A DNA stretch of 32,310 nucleotides from Candidatus Gastranaerophilales bacterium. Lineage in GTDB: Bacteria > Cyanobacteriota > Vampirovibrionia > Gastranaerophilales > Gastranaerophilaceae. The first letter of the stretch is position 1; each line of letters starts with the position of its first letter. Position numbers and translations under genes: made by a program. Shown here one piece after another: positions 17,175 through 19,986 of the stretch. The notes under the pieces are model-generated. The model was given only the letters and a program-made list of their open reading frames with translations, searched no databases and had not been told where the DNA came from. The stretch lies in contig CALVGY010000005.1 of the NCBI GenBank assembly GCA_944327215.1, positions 1 to 32,310 of the forward strand, given 5' to 3'.

Positions 17175-18203
17175 CTAATACATTCTGTATTCATTCCCGC
17201 CTTTTATACAGTCAAGAATCCCCTTGAAAGAAGTTTCCAATATATAATCAATTGCATCTTGAGTTTCGTAGGCAACATGAGGGGTTACAATTACATTATC
17301 CATTTTAACCAACTCTTTAACCATTTTTGCTTCTTCAAGACAAACAATATCGTTATTAAGCTGTTTTGCCAGTTGAATACATCTGAAGCTTGACTGATTA
17401 CACATAATTACATCTAAAGCTGCACCTGCAAGCTTTTTCTTCTCCAAGAAATCATATAACGCCAAAACATCAACAATTTCTGTACGGGAAGTATTAATTA
17501 AATATGCAGAATCCTTCATCAATTCAAATTGTTTTGCCGAAAACATATGAAAATTATCTCCCGTATAAGGAATATGTATAGAAACAATGTCGGAAGTCTT
17601 TAACAAAGTATTTAAATCAACATATTTTATCCCAAACTTTGAAATCAGTTCCTTCTTCTCAAATATGTCAAATGCAATAACATTCATCCCAAATGCACAA
17701 GCGATTTTGCAAACAGAACCTCCAATAGCACCGGTTCCGACAACTCCCAAAGTAAGATTTGACAAATCTCTCCCCAAAAATTTTGGACAAAAACCCAATT
17801 TTTCTTCTCCAATATAACGAGCAGCAGGAACAATATGTCTTACAAGGCTAATCATCAACCCTATCGTATATTGAGCAACTGATTTTGAGCCGTATCCTTC
17901 AACGTTAATAACCGCAATATTTTTAGCCGCAGCAGCTTTTAAATTTATATGATCAACACCTGTTGAACGAGTTGAAATTATTCGTAAATTTTTAAATGAA
18001 TTAATTACATTTTCACTAACCTGTGAATCTACAAATACACTTATCGCATAAGTACTGTCAAGCTTTTCCTGTGGAATATCTTTTATCAAATCCTCATTTA
18101 AACTTTCACTATAAAAAGTTATATCATAATGTTCAAATTTGCGATTACCAAAAAATTTTTTTTCACTCTCACGATAATCAAAAACCATTATTTTTATTGT
18201 CAT
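17175..18203 (-). CDS. D-isomer specific 2-hydroxyacid dehydrogenase (D-lactate dehydrogenase-like)
   Basis: A 342-residue NAD-dependent dehydrogenase, closest in feel to the LdhA/VanH branch (RSTGVDHINL at 79-88). The dinucleotide motif is GVVGTGAIGG (153-162). The catalytic Arg is R240 in INTSRTEIVD, although the usual RG reads RT, and the catalytic His is H309 in VTPHVAYE. The Glu expected just after GxxLDV (DVYE/DVFE) is missing: the sequence reads ALDVIMCNQSS. It may therefore be impaired or use another residue. GGAGG nine bases before the ATG fixes the start. Lactate formation would fit a fermenter, but the substrate is not established. Confidence 0.88.
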   Translation of the reverse strand: MTIKIMVFDYRESEKKFFGNRKFEHYDITFYSESLNEDLIKDIPQEKLDSTYAISVFVDSQVSENVINSFKNLRIISTRSTGVDHINLKAAAAKNIAVINVEGYGSKSVAQYTIGLMISLVRHIVPAARYIGEEKLGFCPKFLGRDLSNLTLGVVGTGAIGGSVCKIACAFGMNVIAFDIFEKKELISKFGIKYVDLNTLLKTSDIVSIHIPYTGDNFHMFSAKQFELMKDSAYLINTSRTEIVDVLALYDFLEKKKLAGAALDVIMCNQSSFRCIQLAKQLNNDIVCLEEAKMVKELVKMDNVIVTPHVAYETQDAIDYILETSFKGILDCIKGGNEYRMY

Positions 18204-18335
18204 CTATGCTTTCCTCCATTTGGAATTATTGCCTAAATAAGCATTTATTCTATTACACAAAAGTACATAGTTTCAGAGTAATTAATAAGTAAAAAGTTGA
18301 ATGAAAAGTGACTGAAAAAAATCTAAAATAAGAAT

Positions 18336-18640
18336 ACAAGATAAAAACTTTCGTACCTCAAAGCCGAATCATCCGAGATATTTTCGGGGCCGGAGAACAC
18401 AGCCTGAAAAAGGATTGTACATCTGTGTTTGATTTCGAAAGGTGATAGTGATAACCTGCATTAATTCCGGCAAATAAGCGGCGGGATACGGACGGCTGCC
18501 CGATAGGGAAACCTTTCATATTTTCCGAATATAATTTAATAATGCGGATAAAAAAGGCAAATGCATATAAAACAAAGCACCTGATATGAAGGCAGTCGAC
18601 AAACACGGAGAATATATCATTCTCCGTGTTTTATTTTTTT
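18336..18640 (+). ncRNA. candidate structured non-coding RNA, family unknown
   Basis: Between two minus-strand genes lies a 460-base gap (18204-18663). Its 18360-18600 part is close to 48% G+C over the first 60 bases counted, against about a third around it, and has no convincing gene. Local stems include AACACAG/CTGTGTT around a CCT-AGG mini-hairpin (about 18395-18430), GGAAA/TTTCC (about 18509-18525) and CCC-gata-GGG. It ends in a strong intrinsic terminator whose T-run lies only on the plus strand, where there is no upstream gene. TAAAAT at 18324-18329 is a possible -10, so the 5' end is a guess. Hallmark sequences of RNase P, tmRNA and SRP RNA are absent. G+C island plus orphan terminator make an RNA gene the best reading. 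Confidence 0.5.
18601..18640 (+). terminator. strong terminator of the candidate ncRNA
   Basis: A perfect 13-bp stem (18601-18613 with 18619-18631, core CACGGAGAAT/ATTCTCCGTG), five-base loop, then TATTTTTTT on the plus strand. The minus-strand side is followed by GTTTGTCGAC, a poor T-run, though it may still help end the glutamate-cysteine ligase transcript. Confidence 0.9.
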
Positions 18641-18663
18641 CAAAAATTATTTAAAAGCTTACA

Positions 18664-19986
18664 CTACGAAACAAATTGTATAAGTTTTTTTACATCCTTG
18701 CCCCAACTGCCGTTCCAATTGCGGATTATCAAATCAGCAGGTGTAATGCCGTTTAATGCATAATTTTTAATAGGTTCTATATATTTTTCTTCTCCCAAAT
18801 CCATACCGATTAAAGATTTTTCTGCAATATATAATATATCTTTTACAACATCTTTAACATAATGATGAGCAATCTTAGCATTCAAAGCACTCTTTGGAAC
18901 ATTATAGCGTAACTCTGAAAAATCTTTGTATTCATAAGATTTGAAAAGTTCCTCTATCTCATCCATTGCACTATGGTTATACAAAATCCCTTTATATATT
19001 GCAAGAATTGCATATTGCAAATCTTTGCCAACACAATCGTGGTTTCTTATTTCTATAAAATTTCTCAAACGAACTTCCGGGAAATAAAGATTTGCATGAA
19101 GCCTGAAATCATCAATATCTGCTTCAAACCCCTCAAACCCATCTTGCATAAATTGATTGAATGTAATTTTTCCATTCACAGGAATTGTCCCCGAATCTCT
19201 ATTGATAAATATCATAGGAGAATCCAAAACATAATCAACATAATCTTCGAATGAAAAATTATTATCAATTTGTCCGACAAATCCGCAACGATCATTATCT
19301 GTATTAAGCCAGCTTAGCGCTCTAAACGTTTTATACCCCGTTTCCACTCCGCCTCTGATTGGGGAATTTGCAAACATTGCAGTCATAAATGGAACAAGTT
19401 TATTTGCAATCTTGAATTTGCGCATTGCATCTTCTTCACTCTCAAAATCAATGCAACACTGAATGCCTGCGGTCTCACGCATCATAACATCAGATAATAT
19501 TCCCCACAAATATTTTGCCATTATTTTGTAACGCCTTTTGGGAATAAGATTAATTGCCTTGTGCGTAGATAAAGGGGAAACCCCATAATTTAAAAGCTTT
19601 ATATTAAATTTATTCAATATAGGTTTTAATTTGTTATCTAAATCAATAATTTTTTGTTCTAACTGTTCAATTGTCTTTTGCGGTTCCAAACTCATTTCAA
19701 GCTGACAGCCGGGCTCCAAAGTAATTGTGTCATGCCCCTGCTTTAATCCGATTATGTTGTAATCGTCCATTATGTAATCCCAATTTTCTTCACGGGCAAA
19801 ATTTCTTAAAAAATTACATATCCCAAATTCACTTGAATAATCAACAGCCTTTGACGTAACCGAAAATACAGGGAGTCTTTCATATTCAATCCCAATTTTA
19901 TGAGATTGAACAGGCTTACATCCTGCCTCAAAAAGTTTTAAGATTTCTGTTTTGTCTAATTTTGTTTTGGTTTGTACGTTGTTCAC
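18664..19986 (-). CDS. gshA: glutamate--cysteine ligase (GCS2 type)
   Basis: A 440-residue member of the plant/cyanobacterial/alphaproteobacterial GCS2 family, which joins glutamate and cysteine, the first step to glutathione. Recognisable parts: KIGIEYERLPV (30-40), TLEPGCQLEMSLEP (about 94-107), MRETAGIQCCIDFE, ANSPIRGG and the late VRLRNFIEIRNHDC. GTG 19986 is the start, with AGGGGGT four bases upstream; an overlapping ATG is out of frame. No glutathione synthetase is nearby. It may instead feed another gamma-glutamyl-cysteine thiol pathway. It is divergent from rsmA. Confidence 0.9.
   Translation of the reverse strand: MNNVQTKTKLDKTEILKLFEAGCKPVQSHKIGIEYERLPVFSVTSKAVDYSSEFGICNFLRNFAREENWDYIMDDYNIIGLKQGHDTITLEPGCQLEMSLEPQKTIEQLEQKIIDLDNKLKPILNKFNIKLLNYGVSPLSTHKAINLIPKRRYKIMAKYLWGILSDVMMRETAGIQCCIDFESEEDAMRKFKIANKLVPFMTAMFANSPIRGGVETGYKTFRALSWLNTDNDRCGFVGQIDNNFSFEDYVDYVLDSPMIFINRDSGTIPVNGKITFNQFMQDGFEGFEADIDDFRLHANLYFPEVRLRNFIEIRNHDCVGKDLQYAILAIYKGILYNHSAMDEIEELFKSYEYKDFSELRYNVPKSALNAKIAHHYVKDVVKDILYIAEKSLIGMDLGEEKYIEPIKNYALNGITPADLIIRNWNGSWGKDVKKLIQFVS

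What the first reader, a model, noticed from the sequence alone, without database searches (positions are those of the whole stretch)
18336..18640. Candidate unknown structured ncRNA with an orphan plus-strand terminator
A G+C-rich island of about 250 bases sits in an otherwise A/T-rich 460-base gap between two minus-strand genes. It carries several local stems and ends in a 13-bp intrinsic terminator with a T-run only on the plus strand, where no gene lies upstream. The hallmark sequences of RNase P, tmRNA and SRP RNA are absent. This is the usual profile of an unannotated structured RNA gene in an AT-rich genome.
Basis: partly seen in the sequence, partly recalled or inferred. Interest (0 to 1): 0.7.

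Follow-up and report, generated by a model that had tools for sequence, protein, structure and literature searches.

The report
Unknown heat-shock-linked structured RNA
This stretch encodes a previously undescribed RNA of about 300 bases with a strongly conserved folded shape, found only in one family of gut bacteria, probably born at the end of a small heat-shock protein gene but kept as a stand-alone RNA gene in the many lineages that lack that protein gene.

Summary
Window 18336-18640 (+) encodes a structured RNA with no Rfam relative. The genome's RNase P, tmRNA, SRP and 6S-like RNAs lie elsewhere. Homologues occur only in its own family (Candidatus Gastranaerophilales, gut MAGs): 28 of 33 genomes of the genus and, more diverged, 9-10 genera, one copy each. 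In 51 homologues 37 of 42 pairs of domain 1 show changes on both sides, 95.5% of cells pair, and no shuffle comes near. A second helix domain also covaries. All 27 members checked end in an intrinsic terminator.

The new point is context. In about 20 loci the RNA starts 0-80 nt after a small heat-shock protein gene (hsp20), behind one conserved promoter-like site. In the window and 13 others that hsp20 is gone, but promoter, RNA and terminator remain. A tree needs about 9 changes (at least 7 forced), and the RNA kept covarying after a loss. So it is not just an hsp20 3' UTR, a dehydrogenase leader or a riboswitch. Best reading: a free ncRNA co-expressed with a stress chaperone, acting in trans. 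The molecular function is inferred, not shown.

The parts
18301..18329 (+). Promoter-like site ATGAAA - 17 - TAAAAT, shared in position with the hsp20 promoter-like site of relatives (AATGAAA-N17-TATTCT)
   Evidence: Consensus scan; the same spacing in most relatives, both in front of hsp20 and directly in front of the RNA. Function inferred.
18336..18640 (+). Structured ncRNA gene, about 300 nt; start inferred from the promoter-like site, end from the terminator
   Evidence: Conservation, covariation, terminator in all 27 members checked
18350..18359 (+). P1 5' arm, pairs with 18483-18492 (one C-A mismatch in this genome, 18356/18486)
   Evidence: 96% of cells paired, 9 of 10 pairs change on both sides
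18483..18492 (+). P1 3' arm
18363..18366 (+). P1b 5' arm GCCG, pairs with 18479-18482 CGGC; the two middle pairs are invariant in 51 sequences
18373..18387 (+). P2 hairpin CCGAG-AUAUU-UUCGG with conserved GAUAU loop region
   Evidence: All 5 pairs change on both sides somewhere
18389..18395 (+). P3 5' arm, pairs with 18465-18471; optional, absent in some genera
   Evidence: All 7 pairs change on both sides, 98% paired; absent in genus g17
18396..18429 (+). P4 stem (18396-18402 with 18423-18429) with small inner hairpin
   Evidence: All 7 pairs change on both sides, 98% paired
18440..18457 (+). P5 hairpin with conserved loop GAUAGUGAUA (shortened to 4 pairs in this genome, two bases missing)
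   Evidence: 99% paired, 4 of 6 pairs change on both sides; reading of alignment A2
18493..18598 (+). Domain 2, closed by P6 (18493-18500 with 18591-18598)
   Evidence: P6 covaries: AUUACC/GGUAAU, GCUGCC/GGCAGU, GCUGUC/GACAGU, GUCGUC/GACGGU
18601..18639 (+). Intrinsic terminator, 13-bp stem and T-run
   Evidence: present in 27 of 27 relatives

Best explanation
A free-standing structured ncRNA gene of about 300 nt on the plus strand. It has two adjacent helical domains (P1-P5 and P6) and an intrinsic terminator. It belongs to an RNA family not in Rfam and, as far as searched, confined to one family of Gastranaerophilales. Ancestrally it is most likely the second product of an hsp20 transcription unit: one promoter, the hsp20 ORF, then the RNA, then the terminator, with the P1 helix marking the 5' end of the mature RNA. 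In the window's lineage the hsp20 ORF was deleted and the promoter now drives the RNA directly. Most likely the RNA is made together with, or in place of, a stress chaperone and acts in trans as a folded (probably protein-binding) RNA. Shown: the conserved structure, the terminator, the shared context, the retention of the RNA in loci with and without hsp20. Inferred: the promoter, co-transcription and 5' processing, the direction of change (loss of hsp20), stress induction, trans action and protein binding.
For: Homologues in 31 of 97 relatives by BLASTN. 51 homologues: 95.5% of cells paired, 37/42 pairs with two-sided changes against 19.3 +/- 2.1 in shuffles, and only 36-48% paired when slid by 1-3 columns. 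P6 covaries in a separate domain. Terminator in 27/27. Length differences of domain 1 are not multiples of 3, so it is not a coding region. Hsp20 directly upstream in about 20 loci, with the dehydrogenase divergent upstream of it. The same promoter-like site in front of hsp20 or of the RNA. 14 RNA-only genomes lack the linked hsp20; only a paralogue of about 30% identity remains. Nine changes of hsp20 presence on the dehydrogenase tree, seven forced by well-supported branches. Compensatory changes within one clade that shares a single loss. RNase P, tmRNA, SRP and 6S-like RNAs lie elsewhere in the genome.
Against: No transcript has been observed. The CM searches of the family and order find the RNA in 49/383 and 62/383 genomes only (strict filters), and 5 of 33 genomes of the genus lack a hit even with the lax search, so it is not essential to the family. 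Some hsp20 orthologues have only a simple terminator behind them. The tree counts changes without polarity, was sampled on presence of the RNA, and is a tree of a linked gene, not of the species. Stress induction and trans action rest on context alone.
Confidence: 0.7

Rival explanations
1. A cis-acting 3' UTR element of the hsp20 mRNA (stability or termination), with window-type loci as leftovers after loss of hsp20.
For: Position directly after hsp20 in about 20 loci; it ends in the unit's terminator.
Against: About 7-9 independent changes of hsp20 presence with the RNA retained; promoter spacing kept in RNA-only loci; compensatory changes inside the RNA-only clade of L001, L003, L004, L006, L007, and 94% of cells paired across all 14 RNA-only loci.
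Confidence: 0.12
2. An antisense-type regulatory sRNA (CpxQ-like or DnrH-like) that base-pairs with mRNAs, released from or co-expressed with a stress-chaperone transcript.
For: The same genomic logic as CpxQ from the cpxP 3' UTR (PMC4817254); a heat-induced ncRNA that pairs with hsp20 mRNA is known in Deinococcus (DnrH, PMC6798082).
Against: The conserved part is an elaborate multi-helix fold with invariant junction bases, not a single-stranded seed followed by a terminator; DnrH-type pairing with the linked hsp20 cannot be the general function, since that gene is missing in 14 genomes tested. Not excluded.
Confidence: 0.25
3. A cis-regulatory leader or riboswitch of a neighbouring gene.
For: A structured RNA followed by a terminator resembles a riboswitch expression platform.
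Against: The gene after the terminator lies on the other strand in the window and in many relatives, and differs between genera. The dehydrogenase is separated from the RNA by a whole hsp20 gene in about 20 loci.
Confidence: 0.03
4. A highly diverged RNase P RNA, tmRNA, SRP RNA or 6S RNA.
For: Size and single-copy nature fit such housekeeping RNAs.
Against: All four are found elsewhere in the same genome (RNase P 236 bits, tmRNA 119 bits, SRP 52 bits, 6S-like 43.5 bits); no Rfam hit to 15 diverse members.
Confidence: 0.01

Closest known systems
CpxQ, sRNA from the 3' UTR of the cpxP stress-gene mRNA in enterobacteria (PMC4817254)
   Same: A stress-protein gene and an ncRNA share one promoter and one terminator; two effectors from one transcript.
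   Different: CpxQ is Hfq-stabilised; the RNA here is about 300 nt with a multi-helix conserved fold, in another phylum, and persists as a stand-alone gene where the ORF is missing. No sequence or structure relation was found.
DnrH, heat-inducible ncRNA of Deinococcus radiodurans acting on hsp20 mRNA (PMC6798082)
   Same: An ncRNA connected with a small heat-shock protein.
   Different: DnrH pairs with the hsp20 coding region in trans; the RNA here is downstream of hsp20 in the same unit and survives without it.
Structured bacterial ncRNA candidates found in G+C-rich intergenic regions of A/T-rich genomes (e.g. DIMPL work, PMC8723152, PMC11109978)
   Same: The same kind of signal: a G+C-rich, covarying, intergenic RNA.
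   Different: Absent from Rfam 15; the specific candidate lists in paper supplements could not be searched here.

Membership tests
Any family of Rfam 15 | Covariance-model score at or above the gathering threshold | tested here: not met
   No hit in the window, nothing credible in 18200-18700 nor in 15 diverse homologues
RNase P / tmRNA / SRP / 6S RNA | Would be the genome's copy of that RNA | tested here: not met
   Each is found on another contig; 6S only just below its cut-off
3'-UTR-derived stress sRNA (CpxQ-like organisation) | Lies downstream of a stress-protein ORF on the same strand, sharing its promoter | tested here: inconclusive
   Met by sequence in about 20 hsp20-linked relatives; in the window itself the ORF is absent, and the promoter is inferred
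3'-UTR-derived stress sRNA (CpxQ-like organisation) | Ends at the unit's intrinsic terminator | tested here: met
   27 of 27 members
3'-UTR-derived stress sRNA (CpxQ-like organisation) | Released by processing and active by base pairing with Hfq | not testable with these tools
   Needs RNA-seq and interaction data; presence of Hfq was not searched
Riboswitch / leader attenuator | Lies in the 5' UTR of the gene it controls | tested here: not met
   The downstream gene is on the opposite strand in the window and many relatives, and varies between genera
DnrH (Deinococcus) | Pairs with hsp20 mRNA | not tested
   Pairing not computed; the linked hsp20 is absent in 14 RNA-bearing genomes, so it cannot be the general function
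Mobile or repeated RNA element | Several copies per genome, or carriage on phages and plasmids | tested here: not met
   One model match in every positive genome; no match to phage or plasmid records

The most novel reading that the evidence does not exclude
A lineage-specific, protein-binding structured ncRNA that is a second effector of an hsp20 heat-shock operon and can replace the chaperone gene altogether: the ORF has been deleted many times while promoter, RNA and terminator were kept, which would make it an RNA-based arm of the protein-quality response.
Probability: 0.3. Interest if true: 0.85.

Novelty: new variant of a known kind. Interest (0 to 1): 0.62.

Why it matters
It is a well-supported, apparently undescribed RNA family in an uncultured but common gut lineage. 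The natural experiment (hsp20 missing again and again between its promoter and the RNA) separates the RNA's value from that of the protein gene it was probably born with, and makes the question 'what does an RNA add to a small heat-shock operon?' directly testable. Annotation pipelines that rely on Rfam 15 will miss it.

Tried and rejected
Rfam at gathering and permissive thresholds, on the window and on 15 homologues: only weak hits, mostly to the terminator hairpin. RNase P, tmRNA, SRP, 6S: all found elsewhere. Dehydrogenase leader and riboswitch: rejected by gene order. Reading the conserved ATGAAA...TTTATTCT block as a leader peptide (MK..KKFIL): it is in frame in some hsp20 loci, but stops early or is out of frame in RNA-only loci while the 17-base spacing stays, so the promoter reading is preferred. 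MAFFT alignment shifted P2 by a base in some sequences and RNAalifold then chose a wrong local pairing; re-alignment to a covariance model fixed this. Plasmid and phage searches: no match. Literature: no paper on an ncRNA of Gastranaerophilales or with Hsp20 plus Melainabacteria was found in the held library; the text of a large survey of human microbiome RNAs does not mention the group, but its tables could not be searched.

Full report
Observation. The island, the terminator and the lack of a plus-strand gene upstream are as described. The plus strand folds better than its shuffles (z -3.4, 0/100), and more so than the minus strand (z -2.05). The terminator alone is not beyond chance (0.7 expected in the region), so the case rests on comparison.

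Known RNAs. Nothing in Rfam 15 matches the window, the region at a permissive cut-off or 15 homologues. RNase P, tmRNA and SRP RNAs score above their cut-offs elsewhere in the same genome, and a 6S-like RNA just below its cut-off. The candidate is therefore none of these.

Conservation. BLASTN finds it in 31 of 97 related genomes. All 27 members whose ends were traced finish in a strong intrinsic terminator about 255-360 nt after the conserved TTCGTATC start. A covariance model of domain 1 finds one copy in each of 49 of 383 family genomes, including 28 of 33 of the genus. A broader core model finds 62 of 383 genomes of the order and 44 of 292 of the phylum, all inside the window's own family. 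Together nine genera have hits at E <= 0.001 (g1, g2, g7, g10, g13, g14, g17, g20, g22) and a tenth (g9) a marginal one supported by its position behind hsp20. Records near the window are named Candidatus Gastranaerophilales, gut MAGs.

Structure. Domain 1: P1 (10 bp), an AAA bulge, P1b (GCCG/CGGC), the P2 hairpin with a GAUAU loop, and an optional P3-P4-P5 arm, missing in some genera so that domain 1 shrinks to 65-67 nt. Over 51 homologues 95.5% of cells are paired; 37 of 42 pairs have two-sided changes (shuffles 19.3 +/- 2.1); sliding by one to three columns drops pairing to 36-48%. The alignment was fitted to the model, which favours the structure; but an unfitted MAFFT alignment already shows 18 pairs with two-sided changes. 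Domain 2 is closed by P6, which changes as ATTACC/GGTAAT, GCTGCC/GGCAGT, GCTGTC/GACAGT, GTCGTC/GACGGT. Domain 1 lengths differ by numbers not divisible by three, so it is not a conserved ORF. In the window itself P1 has one C-A mismatch and P5 lacks two bases (reading).

Context. In about 20 loci the order is dehydrogenase (-), then hsp20 (+), then the RNA (+), the RNA starting 0 to about 80 nt after the hsp20 ORF. In the window and 13 further loci hsp20 is missing and the RNA faces the dehydrogenase directly. Hsp20 is PF00011. The intergenic region beside the dehydrogenase keeps a promoter-like AATGAAA-N17-TATTCT (TAAAAT or TAGAAT in some) in both arrangements; in genus g17 most loci depart from this pattern. 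Genomes of the RNA-only type hold no orthologue of the linked Hsp20, only a paralogue of about 30% identity; one of them (G030) is only 78% complete. On a dehydrogenase tree the presence of hsp20 changes nine times, at least seven forced by well-supported branches. Sister pairs such as L002/L008, L015/L017 and L072/L071 differ in this. Since hsp20 behind the dehydrogenase occurs across genera, repeated deletion is the simplest reading, but the method does not fix polarity. Within the clade of L001, L003, L004, L006 and L007, which all lack hsp20, three pairs of domain 1 show compensatory differences, and P6 in L001 differs compensatorily too. The RNA therefore stayed under selection without hsp20.

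How it likely works. Shown: conserved fold, terminator, position, independence from hsp20. Inferred: transcription from 18301-18329, co-transcription with hsp20 in relatives with release of the RNA at P1, stress-linked expression, action in trans. The invariant junction bases (AAA bulge, AUCAU, GAUAU loop, AAUNAGCGGC) look more like a protein-binding or tertiary-contact core than a pairing seed; this is inference. A CpxQ-type antisense function (PMC4817254) is the main alternative. DnrH (PMC6798082) shows that an ncRNA can serve hsp20 regulation, but here the RNA persists without the linked hsp20.

Limits.

Noticed in passing
L073:798-809, L080:827-838, L085:225-238 (genus g13, downstream of the RNA): The gene after the RNA terminator begins with ATG and, within about 20-30 bases, a run of 12-14 G; reading on in L080 leads to a pilin-like N-terminus (KSAFTMAEVLITIGIIGIVAAM). 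It looks like a phase-variable pilin or pseudopilin gene.
   Followed up: partly
own genome G000:C46:13133-13314 (locus L031): A 6S-like RNA scores 43.5 bits, just under the Rfam cut-off of 46.4: a diverged 6S RNA of Gastranaerophilales that annotation would miss.
   Followed up: no
upstream of hsp20 in L002, L009, L014, L016 and others: The conserved promoter-like block also reads as a short leader ORF (MK...KKFILK), in frame with hsp20 in some genomes; either a double use or a recent start-site extension.
   Followed up: partly
L094, L095, L097 (genera g24, g15, g5) downstream of the hsp20 orthologue: These have short different hairpins or only a terminator where the RNA would be; L094 shows another long-range pairing (GCAGGA...TCCTGC) that may be an unrelated or very diverged RNA.
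   Followed up: no
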